This document shows, one piece after another, positions 5,835 through 14,063 of a DNA stretch of 52,255 bases. The DNA is taken from NCBI GenBank assembly GCA_025936825.1, contig JAICSO010000027.1, positions 1 through 52,255 on the forward strand, read 5' to 3'. The translations under genes and the position numbers were made by a program. The notes beneath the pieces are model-generated. The model searched no databases. It was not told the DNA's origin and saw only the letters and a program-made list of their open reading frames with translations. Source of the stretch: Terriglobales bacterium (GTDB lineage Bacteria; Acidobacteriota; Terriglobia; Terriglobales; Acidobacteriaceae). The stretch's first letter is position 1. The number at the start of each line of letters is the position of its first letter.

Positions 5835-6149
5835 CGAATCCTCCCGCATGTGCGGTATCTCCTGACCTTTAACCTGAGAAATCTTGCCTCTGACTACCTG
5901 AGAATTGGTAGAAACACAAAAAGCTGAGTTACCAAAGTGCAACTCTAATTCCATAGACTCTGAAGGTGTGTCAGGCTATACGGTGCAGTAGCTTACGAGC
6001 AACTCTGCACATTAGTCAAGCCTTTTGCATACGGTATTCTGGATTTCGATACAAATGAGGTATATGAAAAAATGTAGGAGTTGACGTTCAAGTTGCGTCG
6101 TTACAGAACCTGGCGATCTCAAATACTTGTTGTAAAATCCTGATTTTCA
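5835..6149. other. Divergent intergenic region, no gene seen
   Basis: This 315-base AT-richer region separates the receptor gene (minus) from the aminotransferase gene (plus) and must hold both promoters. A possible -10 element for the rightward gene (TGTAAAAT, about 6131-6138) lies just upstream of its ATG, but no convincing -35 box could be assigned. No ORF or RNA was recognised. Confidence 0.4.
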
Positions 6150-7448
6150 ATGCCAAAACTCCAGCCATCTGCTGTGGCAGACATCCCTACGCTCGATCTG
6201 AAGCGGCAATATGTTGATATCGAGGGGGAGGTCCGAGCCGCCATCGGCCGCGTCTGCGCCTCGCAGCAGTTCGTGCTAGGACCGGAAGTTGAGGCGTTCG
6301 AGCAAGAACTGGCGCAATTCGTTGGCGCGAAGCACGCGGTCGGCTGCGCCTCGGGAACTGATGCCCTTTGGCTGGCGCTGGCGGCTGCTGGAGTTGGCCC
6401 AGGCGACCGCGTCATCACCACTCCTTTTAGTTTTTTTGCCTCTGCGAGCTCGATCGTTCGGGCTGGCGCGGAACCCGTTTTCGTGGATATCGAGCCGGAA
6501 ACGATGAACTTGGATCCGGCAAATGTCCGAGACTTCCTCAAAAAAACCAGCGGGTTCCTCGACTCGAATAATCAATCCGTGGTCGGATCGATGCGCTTCG
6601 CTCAGAATGACCGTAGAGAAAGGGGGCAAAGCCAAGTTGCCGGCCGGATCAAGGCCATTCTTCCCGTCCATCTATATGGCCAATGTGCCGACATGACCGC
6701 CTTCCAGCGAATCGCATCGGAACACGACATAGTCCTGATCGAGGATGCTGCCCAAGCCATCGGCGCGAAATGTAACGGCAACCCTGCAGGTTCCATGGGC
6801 GTCGCCGCTGCTTTCAGTTTTTATCCCACGAAGAATCTGAGCGCGTACGGCGATGCCGGTATGGTCACAACCAACGACCCGGCCTTGGCCGATCACATGC
6901 GCCGCCTTCGCAACCACGGAAGTCCCGAGCGCTATCTGCACACCGAGTTTGGATGGAATGCACGTATGGACGCGATCCAGGCCGCCGTGTTGCGGGTGAA
7001 ACTAAAACATATTAATCGCTGGAACGATCGGCGACGAAATCATGCGGAAACTTACAGTCTGCTTCTCAAAAAAGCAGGCCTGGTCGCTGAAGGTTTCTCT
7101 CCAGAAGAAAACGCTGGCTCGGCGGATCGGGCCAATCGCTCCGGCTTTCCTCTCCAACTCCTCCACACCTCGCCCTACGCGTTCCATATCTTCCATCAAT
7201 ATGTCATTCGAGCTGAGCGGCGCGACGAACTTCGTGCCTTCCTGAAATCTCGCGGGATCGCAAGCGAAGTCTACTACCCGCTTCCGCTGCATCTGCAGCC
7301 CGTGTTCGCTTACCTGGGATATAAAAGAGGAGATTTGCCGGAGACCGAGAAGGCGCCGAATGAGGTATTGGCCCTACCTATGTTCCCGGAACTGACACAG
7401 GAAGAAATTGCACGAGTGGTTGCCGAGATCGCAGATTTCTACAGCTAG
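6150..7448 (+). CDS. DegT/DnrJ/EryC1/StrS family aminotransferase with in-frame insertion
   Basis: The 432-residue protein is a fold-type I PLP enzyme of the sugar aminotransferase family, which typically aminate nucleotide keto-sugars for envelope polysaccharides. Diagnostic stretches are LKRQY at the start, GCASGTDALWLAL, ITTPFSFFASASSI, VHLYGQCADM, LIEDAAQAIGA, FYPTKNLSAYGDAGM with the PLP lysine, FGWNARMDAIQAA and the C-terminal YYPLPLHLQP. Two segments exceed the usual fold: residues about 133-165, encoded by 99 bases that contain GCGCTTCGCTCAGAATGAC, and roughly residues 315-340. The first resembles a dispersed intergenic repeat read in frame. The catalytic core is intact, so activity remains plausible. 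No sugar-nucleotide genes are adjacent. Confidence 0.9.
   Translation: MPKLQPSAVADIPTLDLKRQYVDIEGEVRAAIGRVCASQQFVLGPEVEAFEQELAQFVGAKHAVGCASGTDALWLALAAAGVGPGDRVITTPFSFFASASSIVRAGAEPVFVDIEPETMNLDPANVRDFLKKTSGFLDSNNQSVVGSMRFAQNDRRERGQSQVAGRIKAILPVHLYGQCADMTAFQRIASEHDIVLIEDAAQAIGAKCNGNPAGSMGVAAAFSFYPTKNLSAYGDAGMVTTNDPALADHMRRLRNHGSPERYLHTEFGWNARMDAIQAAVLRVKLKHINRWNDRRRNHAETYSLLLKKAGLVAEGFSPEENAGSADRANRSGFPLQLLHTSPYAFHIFHQYVIRAERRDELRAFLKSRGIASEVYYPLPLHLQPVFAYLGYKRGDLPETEKAPNEVLALPMFPELTQEEIARVVAEIADFYS
6546..6644. repeat. Repeat-like 99-base in-frame insertion in the aminotransferase gene
   Basis: Between the conserved blocks VRDFLKK and RIKAILPVHL, where family members have only a few residues, this gene carries 99 extra bases (33 codons). 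The stretch includes GCGGGTTCCTCGACTC and GCGCTTCGCTCAGAATGAC, sequence typical of short repeats found between genes in many bacteria. Its length is a multiple of three, so the reading frame is kept. The exact ends are approximate. Confidence 0.5.
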
Positions 7449-7596
7449 ACTGCCAGCTGTATTTTCTTGAAAACGCCAGTATTCATGCTGTTTCTGCTGA
7501 GTCGGGTACAATGGTGGACCGTGAACGATCTCCATGATATCTGCGTTTAAATGGGCGCGTACTGGGCCTATATTGCATCAGCAAAAGGGAAAGCAA

Positions 7597-8079
7597 ATGT
7601 TGTACCTGCGTACGCTACGATTCTCAGTCTTTTTCATAATGTCCTGCGCTGGCCTGGCGCAAGTGCTGAGCATGCCAACCACCCCAGGAGGCAAATTTGG
7701 CGGAGGCATGGGGCTGGATCAGATTCAGGCGACTCAGATAAGCTTTGATATATTCCTGATCAATAGCCGCAACGCCGATCGCACGCCGCTCCAGAGCCCA
7801 AGCGGATCTGTCTCGAGGTTCGATTTGAAGGCTCCGGGGAAAGCAAAAAAGGAATACGAAAAAGGGTATCAGCTACTTCAGCGCAAAGATTTGCAGGCTG
7901 CGGTTCAGCACCTGTCAAATGCAATCCGGATTTACCCAGATTTCGTCGCCGCGCGTAACTCTCTCGGAACCGCTTATCTCGATCAGAATCAGTATCAATT
8001 GGCTCGTGACGAGTTCGCAAAAGCGGAGGGCGGGAGCTTAACAGACGGTTATTCGCGGACGGTACCTCCTGACGTATAA
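7597..8079 (+). pseudogene. Secreted TPR protein, C-terminally truncated
   Basis: The likely start is the ATG at 7597, giving a signal peptide (MLYLRTLRFSVFFIMSCAGL) and about 160 residues. A low-complexity region rich in Gly and Pro follows, then a linker, then about two tetratricopeptide repeats (AKKEYEKGYQLLQRKDLQAA; FVAARNSLGTAYLDQNQYQL). The second repeat stops abruptly after DEFAKAE and the frame ends in an unrelated tail that overlaps, in another frame, coding sequence of a VWFA-related protein (8042-8218). I infer that a deletion joined the 5' part of a TPR gene to the 3' end of another gene. Family members usually have many more repeats. A short functional protein cannot be excluded. 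Confidence 0.55.
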
Positions 8080-8218
8080 ACCCGCTGGCTTTGAATCTGA
8101 CGGCCGCTACCGCTCAATCAACGTCGCCGCCCAGCGGGACGGACATCGACTGAGGGTCTTTGCCCGTAAAGGATATTACGCCTCCGTCGCAAAGCCTGAA
8201 CCTGACAATCGGCAGTAA
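8042..8218 (+). pseudogene. C-terminal remnant of a VWFA-related (TIGR03436-type) protein
   Basis: In the frame one base ahead of the TPR gene, 58 codons without a start read RGRYLLTYKPAGFESDGRYR, then SINVAAQRDGHRLRVFARKG and YYAS before a stop. This is the usual ending of acidobacterial VWFA-related proteins, where an exported von Willebrand A domain is followed by a strand pattern closing on VRARKGYYAP-like sequence. No start, A domain or other part is present. It is the tail of a gene whose body has been lost at the junction with the TPR gene. Confidence 0.65.
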
Positions 8219-8351
8219 CTCATGGATCACTTTTCTAATTAAACGTTTCTGCCAGTGGTGTCATCCCTCTCTAGCCCTGGTTTGGGGTCTAAATGAAACC
8301 AGCTTGAACGAAGCAGGCTCAGGGGGGGCGAATACGATGCTAATCATATTT

Positions 8352-9578
8352 CTAATATTTTGAAAACCCGCCGCTCAGGTTCGTTTTGAAATACTTGCCC
8401 CTGGAAGTGGTCTCCGGCCTTTGCCGTATAGCGTTTGGTGCCTCCAAAAGCGGCGTTGACCGATCGTATTCTCGGGATGCATACAGAGCAGCCAACGCAC
8501 GATACATGCGACGCTCGGCGGTCGTTTCAGCTCGAGAAAACCGGTCCGCGATGTCCGGTTCCACGATTGCCGTAGCCATCCGCGTAATCTGGTCAGCCCT
8601 CTCAAGCAGGGCGGCCTCTCTGCCCCGAGATTCCAATTGGCTGATTGCAATCGAAAGCACCTCTGACAACGACTTCAGAGTTTCTCCGCGACCCTCCTCC
8701 CTCGCCTGCTCTTTTAAGGTCCCATCCGCAGATTGTTGCGGTTCAGGTAAATCCTTTACGGTCAGTGAAGGTGATTCCACGGGCACTAGATTCTGCCCCC
8801 GCTCCGCTTTCAGCTTCCCAGATTCGTATTTAAGGGCCGCAGCGATGCGAAGCACTTCTTTCTCCTTCTCGGTCAATCTCTCAAACTGCAGCGCACCTGT
8901 TGAGTCCGGTGATGCGCTTTTTGTGCTTTGATTTAGACCTGAATTTATTTCAAGCACGGCGAGCGTCACTTCGCTTGCCAAACCACAACACGCGCGCAAA
9001 GTTACAATTTGCTTTTCGTTGAGTGCCAAACCCCTGTCTACAGAGCTTTGAAGATTCCGCACTTGACGCCTGAGGAACAAAACTCCGTCACTCGATGAGG
9101 CCAGTTCCAGCCGAAGGTTCTCCAATTTTTCAATCAGTTGCGTACGCGTGCGAGCGTCTAGAGCGGTATCTTGAGTGAGAGATTCGCATAAGAGCAAGAA
9201 CTCACCCTTAAGCTTCTGAATCTTACCTGCTCGAGCTACTTTGTCACTAATGTTTGCAATGCCGAGACGGGCGCTCAGCTCCAGGTGTTCTGCCCGCCGG
9301 ATCCGCTCTCGGCGCCACCAGTTCTCGACAAAATCAATCACTAAAGTCTCCTCCAGAGAACCGACCGGGTGGAGCGTCTTCCAAAATTCTGCTTTGATTT
9401 TGTTGAAATCTGCTTCTTTTTCGTCGAGTGTAGGGATTACGATTCCACGTGAAAAAATCCCATCCTTGACTGAGTTTTGAGCAGCTCGCTGTTTTCCCCG
9501 GGCTGTTTTCGGCCCGGCGGATTTACCGCCATTGGTGCGGCTCGCTCCGGACTTAGCCGCTGAAGTGCTGCTTGTCAT
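8352..9578 (-). CDS. Hypothetical protein with GPKTARGK-type N-terminus
   Basis: The 408-residue protein starts at an ATG preceded by AAGGAG at good spacing. Its N-terminus is low-complexity and basic, with the motif GGKSAGPKTARGKQRAAQNS followed by VKDGIFSRGIV. This matches a family common in Acidobacteria and Planctomycetes whose members share GPRTAEGKARSSRNALKHGL-like starts; no function is established that I can name. The middle has helical segments with a Trp-Trp-Arg-Arg-Glu block (FVENWWRRERIRRAEHLELS), and the rest is charged and probably helical. There is no signal peptide or membrane segment. It lies on the same strand as the XRE regulator, 86 bases downstream of it, at the edge of the recombination cassette. 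Confidence 0.7.
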   Translation of the reverse strand: MTSSTSAAKSGASRTNGGKSAGPKTARGKQRAAQNSVKDGIFSRGIVIPTLDEKEADFNKIKAEFWKTLHPVGSLEETLVIDFVENWWRRERIRRAEHLELSARLGIANISDKVARAGKIQKLKGEFLLLCESLTQDTALDARTRTQLIEKLENLRLELASSSDGVLFLRRQVRNLQSSVDRGLALNEKQIVTLRACCGLASEVTLAVLEINSGLNQSTKSASPDSTGALQFERLTEKEKEVLRIAAALKYESGKLKAERGQNLVPVESPSLTVKDLPEPQQSADGTLKEQAREEGRGETLKSLSEVLSIAISQLESRGREAALLERADQITRMATAIVEPDIADRFSRAETTAERRMYRALAALYASREYDRSTPLLEAPNAIRQRPETTSRGKYFKTNLSGGFSKY

Positions 9579-9664
9579 TTTTGCTCCTTTTACTTATTTG
9601 CGACTCCGAAATGAGGACAGATCCTCCCTGCTCTCTTGAAAGAATCGCGCCAAATTGCACGAGG

Positions 9665-9898
9665 TTACCTGTGGTAGATACGACCACAAACAATCCAGTC
9701 GATGCTTCTCGCAAATCTAGCGCCCAAACGTGCGAGTACGTCCAATGTCGGGGCAATCATACCCCGCTCAATTTTCGATAATTGTCCCTGACTGATTCCG
9801 AGCTCATTCGCAAGCTCTTCCTGGCGCAGATTACCGCGGAGGGCGCGAATGCGCTTTCCGATCTCCCGTAAATCTACCGACGCGGCGACTCGTGCCAT
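9665..9898 (-). CDS. XRE-family transcriptional regulator
   Basis: The likely start is the ATG at 9898, giving 77 residues; the frame stays open upstream to 9964 but would run through the operator array. The protein is a single helix-turn-helix domain of the Cro/C1 type: IGKRIRALRGNLRQEELANE, then LGISQGQLSKIERGMIAPTL. There is no ligand or protease domain, so how it is inactivated is not visible. It is transcribed away from the annealing-protein/nuclease operon. The array of GAATATTC palindromes sits 18-55 bases upstream of its start and over the opposing promoter. I infer that it represses that operon and itself. Confidence 0.9.
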   Translation of the reverse strand: MARVAASVDLREIGKRIRALRGNLRQEELANELGISQGQLSKIERGMIAPTLDVLARLGARFARSIDWIVCGRIYHR

Positions 9899-9904
9899 CC
9901 CTAG

Positions 9905-9934
9905 TTGACATTTCTGGAATATTCCTATTAGAAT
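9905..9934 (+). promoter_or_regulatory. Rightward promoter of the recombination cassette
   Basis: A perfect -35 box TTGACA (9905-9910) is followed after 18 bases by TAGAAT (9929-9934), five of six matches to the sigma-70 -10 consensus. Transcription would begin near 9941, leaving a leader of about 105 bases before the likely GTG start at 10046. The spacer and the -10 box are covered by the first two palindromes of the operator array, as expected for repression. Confidence 0.65.
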
Positions 9935-9953
9935 ATTCCCGTTGGAATATTCC
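9916..9953. promoter_or_regulatory. Triple palindromic operator array
   Basis: Three copies of GAATATTC, two extended to GGAATATTCC, lie at 9916-9925, 9931-9938 and 9944-9953. Their centres are exactly 14 bases apart. They occupy the promoter spacer, the -10 box and the start region of the rightward promoter, and lie just upstream of the divergent XRE gene. A dimeric XRE repressor is the obvious candidate ligand. Confidence 0.75.
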
Positions 9954-10045
9954 TGGTGGAACAAACCAATCTACAATATGAGTATATTTCCCGGATTTGG
10001 GTATTAACTAGCCTGGGCCGTACCACCTCATTAAAAGGACACCCG

Positions 10046-10807
10046 GTGAACCACAAATCGCTTTTTGCCGCTAACATGCGTCTCGCGAAGAAATTATGGC
10101 CAGCTTTGTCGGCGAGAACTCTGAGAGTGCTGGGAGATATTACACACCGACATGGGCTTTCAGTCCTGTGTGGTGAGGTTGTGCCGATCAATGAGAGATG
10201 GTATGTCACGCACGTGGGCCTGCTCAGAATCGCTCAACACCGGAAGTGTCGAGGAATTCATGTGGAACTCCTCACGGACCTGTGCGATCCGCAAGCAGCA
10301 CGATGGTGCGCCAAGGCTATGGTATTCACGTCGGCGAGCTCTCGCGGCTTCGTCGGACATGGCGATGCAGACCCATCCAACGTTTCTCCGTTGGTTCATG
10401 GTGCAGAAATGAGAGTGGCTGAGACCCGGGCAGTAAATCGAGCACTCCGAAAAGCCTACGGCATTGGCATCTGCTCGTTAGAAGAGCTCGGAGCTCAACG
10501 ATGTGACCAGACGCCGCAGCGAGACCTTCGCAAACTCCCACCGGAGAACGTCGAGAAGGACAATAACAATGGGAATGGCGCGCGGCTGCGCGATCGACTC
10601 TGCCAAATCATTCGTAAACACGAGCTGGATGGTGAGCTGGTCAAAGCCTACGTCGCAGACTTCTGTGGGACAAAGACTCTTCGGGAGGCTACGCGGGAGC
10701 AAATTGAAGCGTTTGTTGTTCACATTGCCGATTGGGCGGAAAAGGACCGCAATGCCCTGCTTTGCCAGCTGAACAGCTATGTCCGCCCTCAGGCAGGTGC
10801 AGCATGA
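10046..10807 (+). CDS. Putative single-strand annealing (Rad52/ERF/RecT-like) protein
   Basis: The start is taken as GTG at 10046 because AAAAGGAC precedes it; the frame is open from 9956 inside the operator. The product has about 253 residues. The N-terminal half has predicted strands around ERWYVTHVGLLRIAQHR and a conserved-looking block at residues 125-140, AETRAVNRALRKAYGI, reminiscent of the AETxAxxRAL helix of ERF and Rad52-type annealing proteins. A separate C-terminal helical module (about 195-250, with VADFCGTKTLREATREQIEA) resembles the small C-terminal domain seen in phage annealing proteins. It heads a coupled operon with a RecB-like nuclease, the classical partner of such proteins. 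The function is inferred from weak motifs and context, not proven. Confidence 0.55.
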   Translation: MNHKSLFAANMRLAKKLWPALSARTLRVLGDITHRHGLSVLCGEVVPINERWYVTHVGLLRIAQHRKCRGIHVELLTDLCDPQAARWCAKAMVFTSASSRGFVGHGDADPSNVSPLVHGAEMRVAETRAVNRALRKAYGIGICSLEELGAQRCDQTPQRDLRKLPPENVEKDNNNGNGARLRDRLCQIIRKHELDGELVKAYVADFCGTKTLREATREQIEAFVVHIADWAEKDRNALLCQLNSYVRPQAGAA

Positions 10808-11244
10808 GACGCCACATAGCAGGACTCAGCACAGCTGATGCGGCACCCGATCAGGGCATTCCGAATGGCGTTTTTCTTGTTCGAGTTGAGCGCGCCCAAC
10901 ATCGTTGGCACGCTCAGAAGCCGTATTACTCCTGCTTATTTGTTGTGCTCGAACCGATGGACATGCGAGGCCAGCGGTTCAGCGCCCGACTTTACGCCAC
11001 TGCCAAAGCTCTGTGGAAGCTCAATTGGTTTCTGCGCGATTTTAGCTATGACCCGGAGCTACTAGGACGGGACGAGATTGACGACAAGAACCTCGTCGGG
11101 CTCTCGGGCGTAGTCAAGATCAGTCATGCCGTCGTGAACGGCACTTCCCTGCTCAACCTAGATGCGTTTGCACCCAAGGACCGCTGGTCCGAATTAGCAA
11201 TCGGAACTGCGGGGCTGGACGACCCAACGCAGGTGGCGTCATGA
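10804..11244 (+). CDS. DUF669-like protein of the recombination cassette
   Basis: The start at 10804 overlaps the preceding stop as ATGA, showing translational coupling; the frame is open further upstream only as an overlap. The 146-residue product contains GVFLVRVERAQHRWHAQKPY, a Trp/Tyr-rich strand pattern, and ALWKLNWFLRDFSYDPELLG, then a final strand set LVGLSGVVKISHAVVNGTSL. This pattern resembles DUF669-type phage proteins found next to annealing proteins and nucleases. I infer a small beta-rich nucleic-acid-binding or accessory role. There is no signal peptide, membrane segment or catalytic motif. Confidence in the family is moderate and in the role low. Confidence 0.6.
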   Translation: MRRHIAGLSTADAAPDQGIPNGVFLVRVERAQHRWHAQKPYYSCLFVVLEPMDMRGQRFSARLYATAKALWKLNWFLRDFSYDPELLGRDEIDDKNLVGLSGVVKISHAVVNGTSLLNLDAFAPKDRWSELAIGTAGLDDPTQVAS

Positions 11245-12044
11245 TCTACAGCTTCACCCAACTGAGCCATTACCTGACCTGCCCGCGTCGTTACCGGCAT
11301 CGCTATCTCGATGGCTGGAAAGAGAAGGACACCCGGGCCGCCATGCTCTTTGGGCGGGCCTTCGAGCAAGCTCTTGCTGCCTATTTCCGCAAGGAAGACG
11401 CTGCTGTCACTCTCTACCGCGAATGGGCTGCCTATAAAGCACAGCCGCTCCATTACTCCGAGCGCGACAGCTGGGACAGCATGCTCCAGCAAGGCATCCA
11501 GCTTCTCGAACGGTTCTGTCAGGAAGACCGTGTGCGTGTACGGCAGCCGCGAAAGAACCTGCAGATCAAGTTTGTGCGGCCGATCGGGGACGGAAACGAG
11601 TTCGTGGCGTATGTGGACGCAATCGGCAAGCTCGACGGCACCGGATGTTTGCTCGAGTGGAAAACGACTTCAAGCCGCTATGCCGAGCACCCCGACGGAC
11701 TATTGGGTCTCGACCCTCAGCTGCTGTGCTACTCGTGGATCACAGGAATCTCGGAAGTAGCCCAAATCGTGTTCGTGCGTAAACGAACGGTCGAAATCCA
11801 GTACCTTCGCACCACGATCACTGATGAGCAACGTCGCGAGTTCAGCGCCCTGGTCCACGATACAGTTCGGCAGATTGAATCCGCCCAGTTTCTACCTCAC
11901 AGCGGCATCCGTTTTCCACAGAACCCGTGCAGCACGTGTCCTTTCGTTGGGCTCTGCCTGCATAAACCGCAGTTAATCGAGGCCGGCCTGATCCGCCGTC
12001 CGGGAGCCCAGAACTTTGGTGTGTTTGACGAGCTTGCGTACTAG
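11241..12044 (+). CDS. PD-(D/E)XK exonuclease, Cas4/RecB-like with Fe-S cysteines
   Basis: The 267-residue protein carries the RecB/Cas4 nuclease motifs. These are a conserved N-terminal helix SFTQLSHYLTCPRRYRHRY with Cys14, then FGRAFEQ at 37-43, Asp126 in YVDAIGKLDG, Glu139 and Lys141 in LLEWKTTS, and Gln160/Tyr164 in DPQLLCYSW. Cys230, Cys233 and Cys239 (PCSTCPFVGLC) plus Cys14 form the four-cysteine [4Fe-4S] signature of Cas4, AddB and related nucleases. The start overlaps the upstream stop as ATGA. No cas genes are present, so a role in DNA end-processing with the putative annealing protein is more likely than CRISPR adaptation. The nuclease family is firm; the biological role is inferred. 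Confidence 0.88.
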   Translation: MIYSFTQLSHYLTCPRRYRHRYLDGWKEKDTRAAMLFGRAFEQALAAYFRKEDAAVTLYREWAAYKAQPLHYSERDSWDSMLQQGIQLLERFCQEDRVRVRQPRKNLQIKFVRPIGDGNEFVAYVDAIGKLDGTGCLLEWKTTSSRYAEHPDGLLGLDPQLLCYSWITGISEVAQIVFVRKRTVEIQYLRTTITDEQRREFSALVHDTVRQIESAQFLPHSGIRFPQNPCSTCPFVGLCLHKPQLIEAGLIRRPGAQNFGVFDELAY

Positions 12045-12054
12045 TACACCGCCT

Positions 12055-12756
12055 ATGACGCCGAAGCTGAATGAAAAACGGGCGCTCTTCGTGCTGTCGA
12101 AGATCGATGAAATTCTCGCCTGGGAGAAGCGCCAGGAAGCAGAGAAAGACACGCGCTTCGTTGAGCTGGGACGCTATTTGTGCGAAGTACGCGCTGGACA
12201 GTACTGGCGGTTAGAAAGATTGTCATCATTTGATGACTTCCTGGAGAGGCGCTTCCCTGAATCTCGTCGGAAGGCCTACTACCTGATGTCCATCCATGAG
12301 CACCTTCCGCCAGAGGCGAAACGGGAGCTGAAGCAGGTGGGATGGAGCAAGGGTCTGGAACTGGCGAAACTCGCCCGACGAAACAACGGCCAGGAGTTTG
12401 ATTGTGCAACCTGGTTGCACAAAGCCCGGGTACTTCCCAAAGAACAGTTTCGCCATGAAGTCGAGAAGGAACTGACGGGAGGCGATTCAGAACCTTCCGA
12501 ACTCATATACTTCAAGGTGTATAAGAGCCAAATCCCGGTGATCGAGCAGGCAATCGAAACTGCTTCGTTGATGCTAGGAAGCGACAAATCCCGCGGCTAC
12601 TGCCTGGAGATGATCTGCGCAGATTTCTTAGCCGGCGCGAATCTCGACCATGCGCAACCGGAACAGCTCTTGCGTTCAGCCCTGCACTTTTTCAAGTTTC
12701 TGCCAGGAGAGCAGCAACACTCTTTCCTAGAATCAGTTGAAAAGAAGTTGGCATGA
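12055..12756 (+). CDS. Hypothetical protein of the recombination cassette
   Basis: The start is taken as the ATG at 12055, ten bases after the nuclease stop. The 233-residue protein begins with a charged helix (MTPKLNEKRALFVLSKIDEI). It then has a region, about residues 60-110, with FLERRFPESRRKAYYLMSIH followed by LKQVGWSKGLELAKLARR. The spacing of those helices resembles the DNA-binding part of ParB/KorB-type and DUF3102-like proteins. The C-terminal half (from about 140) is a mixed alpha/beta segment with YFKVYKSQIPVIEQAIETAS. No enzyme motif is seen. Its place between the nuclease and the HNH gene, coupled to the latter, implies a DNA-related role, but I do not recognise a named family. 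Confidence 0.65.
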   Translation: MTPKLNEKRALFVLSKIDEILAWEKRQEAEKDTRFVELGRYLCEVRAGQYWRLERLSSFDDFLERRFPESRRKAYYLMSIHEHLPPEAKRELKQVGWSKGLELAKLARRNNGQEFDCATWLHKARVLPKEQFRHEVEKELTGGDSEPSELIYFKVYKSQIPVIEQAIETASLMLGSDKSRGYCLEMICADFLAGANLDHAQPEQLLRSALHFFKFLPGEQQHSFLESVEKKLA

Positions 12757-12986
12757 GCTCCTCACGTCTTAAAACAACACCTGTTCGGCTGTCGCCGTCT
12801 GCATACGAAGCAGTCCGAAGAAGAGTTCTTGAACGCGACGGCTGGAGCTGCCAATCCTGCGGATCAACGAAGAATTTGGAAGTCCATCATCAGCAGTATC
12901 GTAGCCACTCTGGGGAGGATACAGAACTGAACCTCATAACTTTGTGCCGACATTGCCACATGTCGGCGCATCGCAATAATGGGTAA
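12753..12986 (+). CDS. Small HNH endonuclease-like protein
   Basis: The 77-residue protein is little more than one HNH beta-beta-alpha-metal domain. Cys33-x2-Cys36 and Cys65-x2-Cys68 would hold structural zinc, His45-His46 (LEVHHQQ) provides the catalytic pair, Asn60 lies in ELNLITLC, and His69 completes the motif. The helix VRRRVLERDGWSCQSCG is typical of the family. Its ATG overlaps the preceding stop, so it closes the coupled five-gene operon. HNH proteins of this size occur in phage, defence and recombination modules and may nick or cut DNA. The target cannot be predicted. Confidence 0.85.
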   Translation: MSSSRLKTTPVRLSPSAYEAVRRRVLERDGWSCQSCGSTKNLEVHHQQYRSHSGEDTELNLITLCRHCHMSAHRNNG

Positions 12987-13109
12987 ATTGGCTGCGAAAT
13001 ATCCTGCATCACCACAACCCTGATCCCGAACCGGGAGCGGCTTTGCAAGCGTCTCCAACTCGTCGTAAGGGATCCCACGATCATGCCTGCGATCACCGAT
13101 TCCTACAGG

Positions 13110-14063
13110 CTAGCCTACCGTCACTTTGCGAACTATCGGCGTATCCATCTTGTACTTGCGCTCGGTGACCGGAAGGTCCGGATTCTTGAGATCCTTCCCC
13201 TTGAGCGTGAAGGTTGGCAGATCGCCTTCTTTGCCGAAGTCCTCGTGCGAGACAGTGACCGGCAATTCACCGCTCAGTCGTTCACGATAGGCAGTCTCAT
13301 ATCGATGTCGCTTCACATTCCACGTGAACACGCGTGCCTGGTTGTAGTCGAACGGTAAGCCGTCCTTTGGCTCGGAAAGAAGCATGAGATATTGCGGCAC
13401 CTCCTTGTCGCCGTCTTTGACCTCATTCAGCACGAAGCAGGCAACGATCCGCTGGCCTTCGGCGTACTGTGCGACTTCCAGTGGCACATCGATATCGATC
13501 AACCGCCCCAGTACCCACCCAACGTGGTTCTGAGAATCGCGCACCAGCCACCAGTCTTCCATGGGAGGCTTCGCGTCTTTTGCCACTGCGGGCTTGATGA
13601 CACCGGGCAGCACCTTCTCAACCGTCGCACGTTTCATGACCGTCAGCTTTGCCCCTTGCGCCACCTGGTAAAGGTGGTCGGTGTCGCGGCCGGGTTCTAC
13701 GTGCAAGTTGGTGTCGTTCCGCGTGACAGCAGTGCCTTGCGCGGGGAGGTCTTTCGACTCCTGCGCCATCTTCTGGAATGCATCGTAGACCTGCTGATTC
13801 ACAAGATAGCGTTGTTCAACCCAGCCTTCGACACCGTTGGGAAGCCTGACTTTGGCAAAGCGCTTTTCCCGATCGACGACTTCCACCCGGTCCCCATTCT
13901 TCGCGGTTCCGACCTTGTTATAGACCTGCGCCAGTTGGTCGCGCAGCGTGACCTGGGGAGCAGCAACGTAATCGACTTCGAGAACACGCTGTCGATGTCG
14001 GCCGCAAGCAGAGAACAACGCAACTAGCGCTAGCAAGAACAGTATTCTGGCGGGAAGTTTCAC
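13110..14063 (-). CDS. Lipoprotein with bacterial SH3 domains
   Basis: The likely start is GTG at 14063, giving a lipoprotein signal (VKLPARILFLLALVALFSAC followed by Gly); the frame continues upstream but only this start places the lipobox LFSAC properly. The roughly 317-residue protein has two SH3-like segments. The first, VYNKVGTAKNGDRVEVVDRE with VEGWVEQRYL, spans about residues 45-90. The second, around 115-195, has TNLHVEPGRDTDHLYQVAQG and GWVLGRLIDIDVP. The rest is a beta-rich domain. SH3 lipoproteins usually bind cell-wall peptides and sit in the envelope. It converges on the recombination cassette with a gap of about 120 bases that shows no strong terminator. Confidence 0.75.
   Translation of the reverse strand: MKLPARILFLLALVALFSACGRHRQRVLEVDYVAAPQVTLRDQLAQVYNKVGTAKNGDRVEVVDREKRFAKVRLPNGVEGWVEQRYLVNQQVYDAFQKMAQESKDLPAQGTAVTRNDTNLHVEPGRDTDHLYQVAQGAKLTVMKRATVEKVLPGVIKPAVAKDAKPPMEDWWLVRDSQNHVGWVLGRLIDIDVPLEVAQYAEGQRIVACFVLNEVKDGDKEVPQYLMLLSEPKDGLPFDYNQARVFTWNVKRHRYETAYRERLSGELPVTVSHEDFGKEGDLPTFTLKGKDLKNPDLPVTERKYKMDTPIVRKVTVG

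What the first reader, a model, noticed from the sequence alone, without database searches (positions are those of the whole stretch)
9665..12986. Compact chromosomal annealing-protein/nuclease cassette under XRE control
Five plus-strand genes are linked by three ATGA overlaps and one ten-base gap. They comprise a protein with an AETRAVNRAL block like ERF/Rad52 annealing proteins, a DUF669-like protein, a four-cysteine Cas4/RecB-type nuclease with all motifs intact, a hypothetical and an HNH domain. An XRE regulator is divergent. This resembles a phage Red-type recombination unit, yet no integrase, replication or structural phage gene is near. It may be a domesticated recombination, DNA-uptake or defence module.
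Basis: partly seen in the sequence, partly recalled or inferred. Interest (0 to 1): 0.8.

Follow-up and report, generated by a model that had tools for sequence, protein, structure and literature searches.

The report
Repeated DNA-annealing operon with swappable controls
The window holds one copy of a five-gene, phage-like DNA recombination operon that occurs, often several times per genome, in one group of soil Acidobacteria, and whose control end differs from copy to copy while the rest is kept alike within a genome, as if the copies recombine with each other.

The parts
8352..9578 (-). Left-arm gene of the GPKTxxGK family, function unknown
   Evidence: Same family 0.2-3.4 kb upstream of erf in 22 of 88 loci, all 24 ORFs (some are fragments) on the opposite strand; no Pfam match above cut-off
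9665..9898 (-). XRE/Cro-CI type regulator, 77 aa from the likely ATG start
   Evidence: PF01381 E 1.5e-12; related XRE ORFs in 17 of 88 loci, ribbon-helix-helix regulators in the same place in others
9905..9934 (+). Promoter-like site TTGACA-18-TAGAAT for the operon
   Evidence: 11 of 12 matches; mean 0.3 in shuffles
9916..9953 (.). Three tandem palindromes GGAATATTCC / AGAATATTCC / GGAATATTCC every 14 bp (9916, 9930, 9944), proposed operators
   Evidence: The only three GAATATTC in the 52-kb window; copies of it, degenerate in places, at the same spacing in XRE-type loci L034, L041, L049, L050
10046..10807 (+). erf: 253-aa putative Rad52/Redβ-type annealing protein
10046..10345 (+). Variable segment: first ~100 codons of erf, no within-genome likeness
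10346..12650 (+). Homogenised core: erf codon ~100 to near the end of g4
   Evidence: Same-genome identity 0.76-0.90 against 0.62-0.81 between genomes in 100-bp windows
10804..11244 (+). Second gene, 146 aa, unknown; no DUF669 match
11241..12044 (+). PD-(D/E)XK nuclease with four Cas4/AddB-type cysteines
   Evidence: PF12705 E 7.9e-19, phrog_1218 exonuclease E 4.9e-13, motifs
12055..12756 (+). g4, 233 aa, phrog_17202 family of unknown function
   Evidence: E 3.7e-13; distant relatives in 21 of 50,697 phage records
12753..12986 (+). Free-standing HNH domain protein, 77 aa
   Evidence: PF01844 E 1.4e-10; IscB-type HNH similarity E 7e-15, below cut-off

Best explanation
The cassette is one copy of a phage-derived, integrase-less multi-copy element of one acidobacterial family. 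Each copy has two parts. (1) A control end: a divergent repressor, in some copies tandem palindromic operators over the operon promoter, and the first ~95 codons of the annealing-protein gene. This end differs from copy to copy, like phage immunity regions. (2) A constant operon: annealing protein, small partner, Cas4/RecB-like nuclease, g4 and HNH. Proposed working: the repressor holds the operon off; when it is released (damage or an incoming element), the nuclease resects DNA and the Rad52-like protein anneals strands, tolerating divergence. One product is exchange between the copies themselves, which keeps the core alike within a genome while control ends persist as separate types. SHOWN: genes, copy number, mosaic history, purifying selection, palindromes. 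INFERRED: phage origin, repression, enzyme activities, that its own enzymes drive the exchange, and how copies reach new sites.
For: Copies: 4 in this genome at unrelated sites; 54 of 397 order genomes, 18 of 80 genera, with up to 6 matches, six being the number of candidates scored per genome; 114 stretches in genome contigs, the 80 kept all titled as Acidobacteria, Terriglobia or their genera. Mosaic, 45 of 88 loci, 990 pairs: for erf codons 1-95, 401 of 2000 label permutations reach the observed genome effect; for each of 8 other segments 0 of 2000; Spearman of erfN with other segments 0.03-0.21, others among themselves 0.42-0.85. Synonymous sites agree: L050 erfN dS 0.52 to L041 (other genome) but 1.81 to L071 (same genome), g4 dS 1.05 and 0.15. 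L034/L060, same genome: N-part 0.40, rest 0.97. Control end: nearest N-part neighbour in another genome shares regulator class in 33 of 48, nearest C-part neighbour in 20 of 48, permuted mean 17.4, maximum 30; tandem palindromes in 7 of 55 upstream regions against 1 of 1320 control pieces. Constraint: median dN/dS 0.065-0.18 by segment. Fold and context. Precedent: Rad52-like phage recombinases tolerate divergence (PMC3945230, passages only).
Confidence: 0.5

Rival explanations
1. Relics of prophages or phage islands whose recombination operon outlasts the rest; the host RecA pathway homogenises the copies and the operon no longer does anything special.
For: Terminase-like pair beside 5 of 88 loci and related terminases in 75 viral contigs, some of 43-80 kb; decayed copies and fragments.
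Against: Purifying selection on all five genes; 47 of 54 copies uninterrupted; the same five genes are kept in 50 of 54; of the 46 of 75 terminase contigs checked only L151, L168 and L172 (the contigs of L110, L112, L111) have cassette genes, though at most about 20.7 kb of each contig was held.
Confidence: 0.25
2. A phage satellite or small packaged element: the left arm carries terminase genes, the right arm the recombination operon, a repressor between them; most copies have lost the terminase.
For: A DUF5763-like gene, two terminase-like genes and a small ORF divergent from the cassette in viral contigs L110 and L112; divergent switch with tandem palindromes in some copies.
Against: Only 5 of 88 loci; no integrase or capsid gene seen beside the cassette; the commoner left-arm neighbour is the GPKT family (22 of 88).
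Confidence: 0.15
3. Domesticated host recombination, DNA-uptake or defence module.
For: Purifying selection; TA genes between pieces near some copies.
Against: Patchy (54 of 397), often multi-copy, absent at the orthologous site of a same-genus genome; no defence model matched specifically.
Confidence: 0.1

Closest known systems
Phage Red/RecET-type modules (lambda Redβ-Exo, Rad52-like SSAP with exonuclease)
   Same: Annealing-protein-like fold and an exonuclease-type nuclease in one operon beside a repressor-like gene; one phage relative of erf lies between Gam-like and SSB genes
   Different: Chromosomal, often multi-copy operon with g4 and HNH and no phage genes recognised around it in the window; nuclease of Cas4/RecB type with four cysteines; no family-level sequence match of erf to Redβ, Erf or Sak
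Phage immunity regions / heteroimmune prophages (recalled)
   Same: Divergent repressor-like gene, here with tandem palindromes overlapping a promoter, and types that differ between coexisting copies
   Different: Repression not shown; the variable region runs into the first ~95 codons of the annealing gene
REP13E12 repeats (DUF222-HNH) of mycobacteria (recalled, not tested)
   Same: Multi-copy chromosomal repeats with an HNH endonuclease
   Different: As recalled, no annealing protein or exonuclease; no DUF222 match here
Phage satellites with own terminase (PICI and the like, recalled)
   Same: Small size, divergent switch, terminase-like genes in a few copies
   Different: No integrase seen, no terminase in the window copy

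Membership tests
Rad52/Redβ-type single-strand annealing proteins | Rad52-like core fold | tested here: inconclusive
Rad52/Redβ-type single-strand annealing proteins | Sequence-profile match to a known SSAP family (ERF, RecT, Rad52, Sak) | tested here: not met
   No Pfam match for the window protein; over 55 members only weak hits to other families; hhalign probability 0.1% with Sak and 3.0% with P22 Erf alignments
Rad52/Redβ-type single-strand annealing proteins | DNA annealing activity and ring or helix assembly | not testable with these tools
   Needs purified protein
Cas4/RecB-like PD-(D/E)XK nucleases | PD-(D/E)XK motifs plus four iron-sulphur cysteines | tested here: met
   D126, E139-x-K141, Q160, Cys14/230/233/239 invariant in 8 copies; PF12705 E 7.9e-19. 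The cas4 equivalog model is below its cut-off (25.6 of 65 bits), so it is not Cas4 proper
DUF669 | Match to the family profile | tested here: not met
   No Pfam or NCBIfam match
Prophage | Integrase, structural and replication genes | tested here: inconclusive
   None seen among the window ORFs of 150 aa or more by reading translations; most of these ORFs were not run through a family search
Phage satellite | Integrase and packaging or hijack gene | tested here: inconclusive
   None recognised in the window (by reading); terminase-like pair in 5 of 88 related loci
Known anti-phage defence system | PADLOC models for the system's proteins | tested here: not met
   Of 7 proteins scanned only the nuclease and HNH matched, with generic Cas4 and HNH/restriction similarities
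Transposon | Terminal inverted repeats and target duplication | tested here: inconclusive
   Homology between same-genome copies L073/L096 ends about at the regulator stop codon and inside the last hnh codons, with no shared ends seen beyond; no close empty site available

The most novel reading that the evidence does not exclude
A self-homogenising family of heteroimmune recombination elements: each copy's repressor-operator end, together with the first half of its annealing protein, gives it an identity of its own, while the annealing protein, nuclease and HNH convert the other copies' cores to their own sequence, so the family stays uniform, and perhaps spreads, by recombination alone, without integrase or transposase. 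The variable half of the annealing protein, which covers the N-terminal helices and first strands of the model, could also stop subunits of different copies from mixing.
Probability: 0.22. Interest if true: 0.85.

Novelty: new variant of a known kind. Interest (0 to 1): 0.62.

Why it matters
Concerted evolution with a sharp edge inside a gene, next to a swappable repressor-operator region, makes a direct test possible of whether a bacterial annealing protein and nuclease shape the sequence of their own gene family. If so, recombination enzymes would be enough to maintain a repeated element without integrase or transposase. It also points to a family of possible annealing proteins, far from the known ones in sequence, in little studied soil bacteria, and to possible recombineering tools for them.

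Tried and rejected
Profile comparison of erf (A5) with a Sak alignment (35 rows) and a P22-Erf alignment (13 rows): no match. Sequence search of erf against solved structures gave mainly TALE repeats in the C-terminal helices, taken as spurious; the nuclease gave none and g4 one hit at E 1.9. Empty-site mapping: SH3-gene neighbours in 120 family genomes, regions read for two same-genus genomes; G004 has the flanking oar and SH3 genes adjacent, but divergence is too great to place junctions, and in G006 the gene's neighbour on that side is another gene; a flank search with L064 in 45 genomes of its genus gave, apart from itself, only a 66% match in one genome and 31 bases in another. Terminal repeats: none seen at L073/L096, L038/L076, L050/L071 ends. 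Enrichment near exopolysaccharide genes: 8 of 34 loci against 1 of 20 control windows, the 7 loci that supplied the markers left out; weak, not used. The idea that g4 plus HNH are a split form of a fused HNH family is recalled and untested. Rejected: GPKT family as chance neighbour, because all 24 ORFs are divergent. Papers: searches returned 0 papers, 112 one, 140 eighteen (8 listed), 113 twenty-seven (12 listed), 46 fifteen, 87 two; from listings alone none seemed to describe this cassette. The library holds open-licence papers only, so absence from print is not claimed.
Full report
WHAT IS THERE. The window is the whole of contig C139 of a 6.54-Mb, 141-contig assembly. The five genes and the divergent XRE gene are as described: erf 10046-10807, a 146-aa gene 10804-11244, a nuclease 11241-12044, g4 12055-12756, hnh 12753-12986, with three ATGA overlaps and one 10-base gap. 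Pfam gives PF12705 (E 7.9e-19) for the nuclease, PF01844 (1.4e-10) for hnh and PF01381 (1.5e-12) for the XRE protein; erf, the second gene and g4 have no match. PHROGs gives weak phrog_22961 for erf (5e-4) and phrog_17202 for g4 (3.7e-13), both of unknown function. So 'DUF669-like' is not supported. The XRE gene probably starts at 9898, leaving 147 bases of control region.

COPIES AND RANGE. The genome has four copies: this one, C22 (85% DNA identity), C140 (79%; erf 5' part lost, second gene broken) and C105 (67%). Their flanks differ. The erf alignment finds 54 of 397 genomes of the order (31 of 268 good ones, 18 of 80 genera); all 54 are in the window's own family by the tool's labels. Only 20 of the negatives are listed, so I cannot say how many other families were drawn. 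At most six candidates were scored per genome, so six matches, the highest number seen, is a floor; many matches are fragments. g4 finds only the own genome among 396 in another draw from the phylum. A scan of genome contigs gives 114 stretches; the 80 kept are all titled as Acidobacteria, Terriglobia or their genera. In viral contigs three contigs of 4-10 kb carry the cassette or part of it (one search also lists two contigs with a 28% alike nuclease). After dropping four loci that repeat contigs fetched twice (L043, L055, L081, L082), 88 loci remain. Of 54 with an erf match and 3 kb of room, 50 have all five genes in order and 47 have each gene uninterrupted. In same-genus genome G004 the genes that flank this region (oar and SH3) are neighbours, so the region 5954-13110, which also holds an aminotransferase and a TPR gene, is not there.

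LEFT ARM. Next to erf lies a small regulator: by ORF clustering XRE in 17 of 88 loci, ribbon-helix-helix classes in 14 and 8, all on the divergent strand, and a co-directional class in 4; by tblastn 48 of 55 loci have one. Beyond it come the GPKT family (22 loci, all 24 ORFs divergent; 8352-9578 here), an unknown pair F429/F236 (9 and 6 loci; one F429 lies on the other side), a DUF5763-like family (8 loci) or a terminase-like pair (5 loci: L037, L094, L110-L112; phrog_2 E 9.5e-7 for L110). Relatives of the terminase ATPase part occur in 75 viral contigs, some of 43-80 kb; of the 46 checked, within the at most 20.7 kb held of each, only L151, L168 and L172 have cassette genes, and they are the contigs of L110, L112 and L111 again. 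The phage collection has no match to it.

MOSAIC. In 45 of the 88 loci, chosen by a script for complete cassettes (29 same-genome, 961 different-genome pairs), the first 300 bp of erf are no more alike within genomes (0.38, 0.56, 0.56) than between (0.37, 0.56, 0.54); from there to about 12650 same-genome pairs lie at 0.76-0.90 against 0.62-0.81; over the last three windows, which hold the end of g4 and hnh, at 0.68-0.75 against 0.60-0.69. Permuting genome labels, 401 of 2000 sets reach the observed value for erf codons 1-95, 0 of 2000 for each of the other eight segments, hnh included; erfN identity correlates with the others at 0.03-0.21, the others among themselves at 0.42-0.85. Protein examples from the 55 aligned erf sequences: L034/L060 same genome, N-part 0.40, rest 0.97; L103/L107 different genomes, 0.90 and 0.76; L042/L093, 0.87 and 0.77; but L073/L096, same genome, 0.94 and 0.95. 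Synonymous sites give the same answer: L050 against L041 (other genome) erfN dS 0.52, g4 1.05; against L071 (same genome) erfN 1.81, g4 0.15. So the two parts have different genealogies, whatever selection does. Most loci are metagenome bins; I think that chimeric assembly at 85-90% identity is unlikely to produce this everywhere, but it was not tested. L073/L096 are alike from about the regulator's stop codon to the last hnh codons and not beyond.

CONTROL END. Between XRE and erf stand three palindromes, GGAATATTCC 9916, AGAATATTCC 9930, GGAATATTCC 9944, 14 bp apart, the only GAATATTC in the window. They overlap the promoter-like TTGACA-18-TAGAAT at 9905-9934 (11 of 12). Similar sites, degenerate in places, have the same spacing in L034, L041, L049 and L050. 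Other loci have other tandem palindromes: ACTAAGCGCTGAGT (L093, L046), GCTAAGCGCTTAGC (L097), CTAGAGCGCTCTAG (L076), ATGATATCAT three times (L061). A strict test is passed by 7 of 55 upstream regions, 1 of 1320 control pieces from 20 windows and none in 20 Markov sets; 48 of 55 do not pass, and the control pieces were taken regardless of genes. The nearest N-part neighbour in another genome has the same regulator class in 33 of 48 cases, the nearest C-part neighbour in 20 of 48, permuted mean 17.4, maximum 30 in 5000 sets; the 7 loci without a recognised regulator were left out. There are exceptions (L072/L077, L042/L093).

SELECTION AND DECAY. Of 15 chosen pairs, median dN/dS over those that could be measured: erfN 0.18 (8), erfC 0.08 (14), second gene 0.12 (12), nuclease 0.10 (12), g4 0.07 (14), hnh 0.13 (8); the rest were missing or saturated. 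The genes are kept under constraint in these copies. Yet 15 of 88 loci have extra cassette pieces nearby (hnh 20, g4 13, erf 4, nuclease 2), all but three pieces in the same orientation as the main copy, and none in 20 control windows; L042 and L079 share one contig, so two hnh pieces and one site are counted twice. Genes between pieces include AbiEii, PIN, Phd, zeta toxin and nucleotidyltransferase families (10 proteins scanned, 8 matched).

HOW IT WORKS. The anatomy is that of a phage-like switch beside a recombination operon. I think the repressor keeps the operon silent and that, once released, nuclease and annealing protein recombine diverged DNA, including the other copies. Rad52-like phage recombinases are known to exchange diverged sequences with defective prophages (PMC3945230; passages seen, abstract passages among them). 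There, 12% divergence cost about 100-fold in the lytic cycle, against 10,000-fold for 4% on E. coli plasmids. The copies in this genome differ from the window's by 15-33% over the aligned parts; the same-genome pairs elsewhere that I read by about 4-16%. That makes the element's own enzymes a fair candidate, besides RecA, for the homogenisation, but this is inference. How copies reach new sites is unknown.

VERDICT. The new points are the multi-copy family, the sharp two-part history inside erf and the regulator-operator diversity.

Noticed in passing
window 8352-9578 and L023, L046, L064, L077 and others: A GPKTxxGK protein family without annotation is divergent from and upstream of the cassette whenever found in the fetched flanks (24 of 24 ORFs in 22 of 88 loci); function unknown.
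   Followed up: partly
L032 1267-2541, L038 5916-7211, L048 6119-7399, L079 6059-7348: An unknown gene of about 430 aa, often with a second of about 236 aa, recurs in the left arm of several cassettes; the L079 pair has no Pfam or PHROG match.
   Followed up: partly
L110 893-2718, L111 954-2875, L037 3191-5491: Terminase large subunit apparently split into two adjacent genes, also in viral contigs of up to 80 kb; the ATPase part has no match in the phage collection.
   Followed up: partly
L065 7584-13293, L077 10962-13941: Toxin-antitoxin type genes (AbiEii, PIN, Phd, zeta) sit between repeated g4 C-terminal/hnh pieces downstream of a cassette.
   Followed up: partly
L007, L008, L026, L064, L101, L109 and window 6150-7448: Several cassettes lie beside exopolysaccharide or O-antigen type genes; 8 of 34 loci against 1 of 20 control windows, too weak to claim.
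   Followed up: partly
window 12753-12986: The HNH protein is most like the HNH part of IscB among NCBIfam models (E 7e-15, below cut-off).
   Followed up: no
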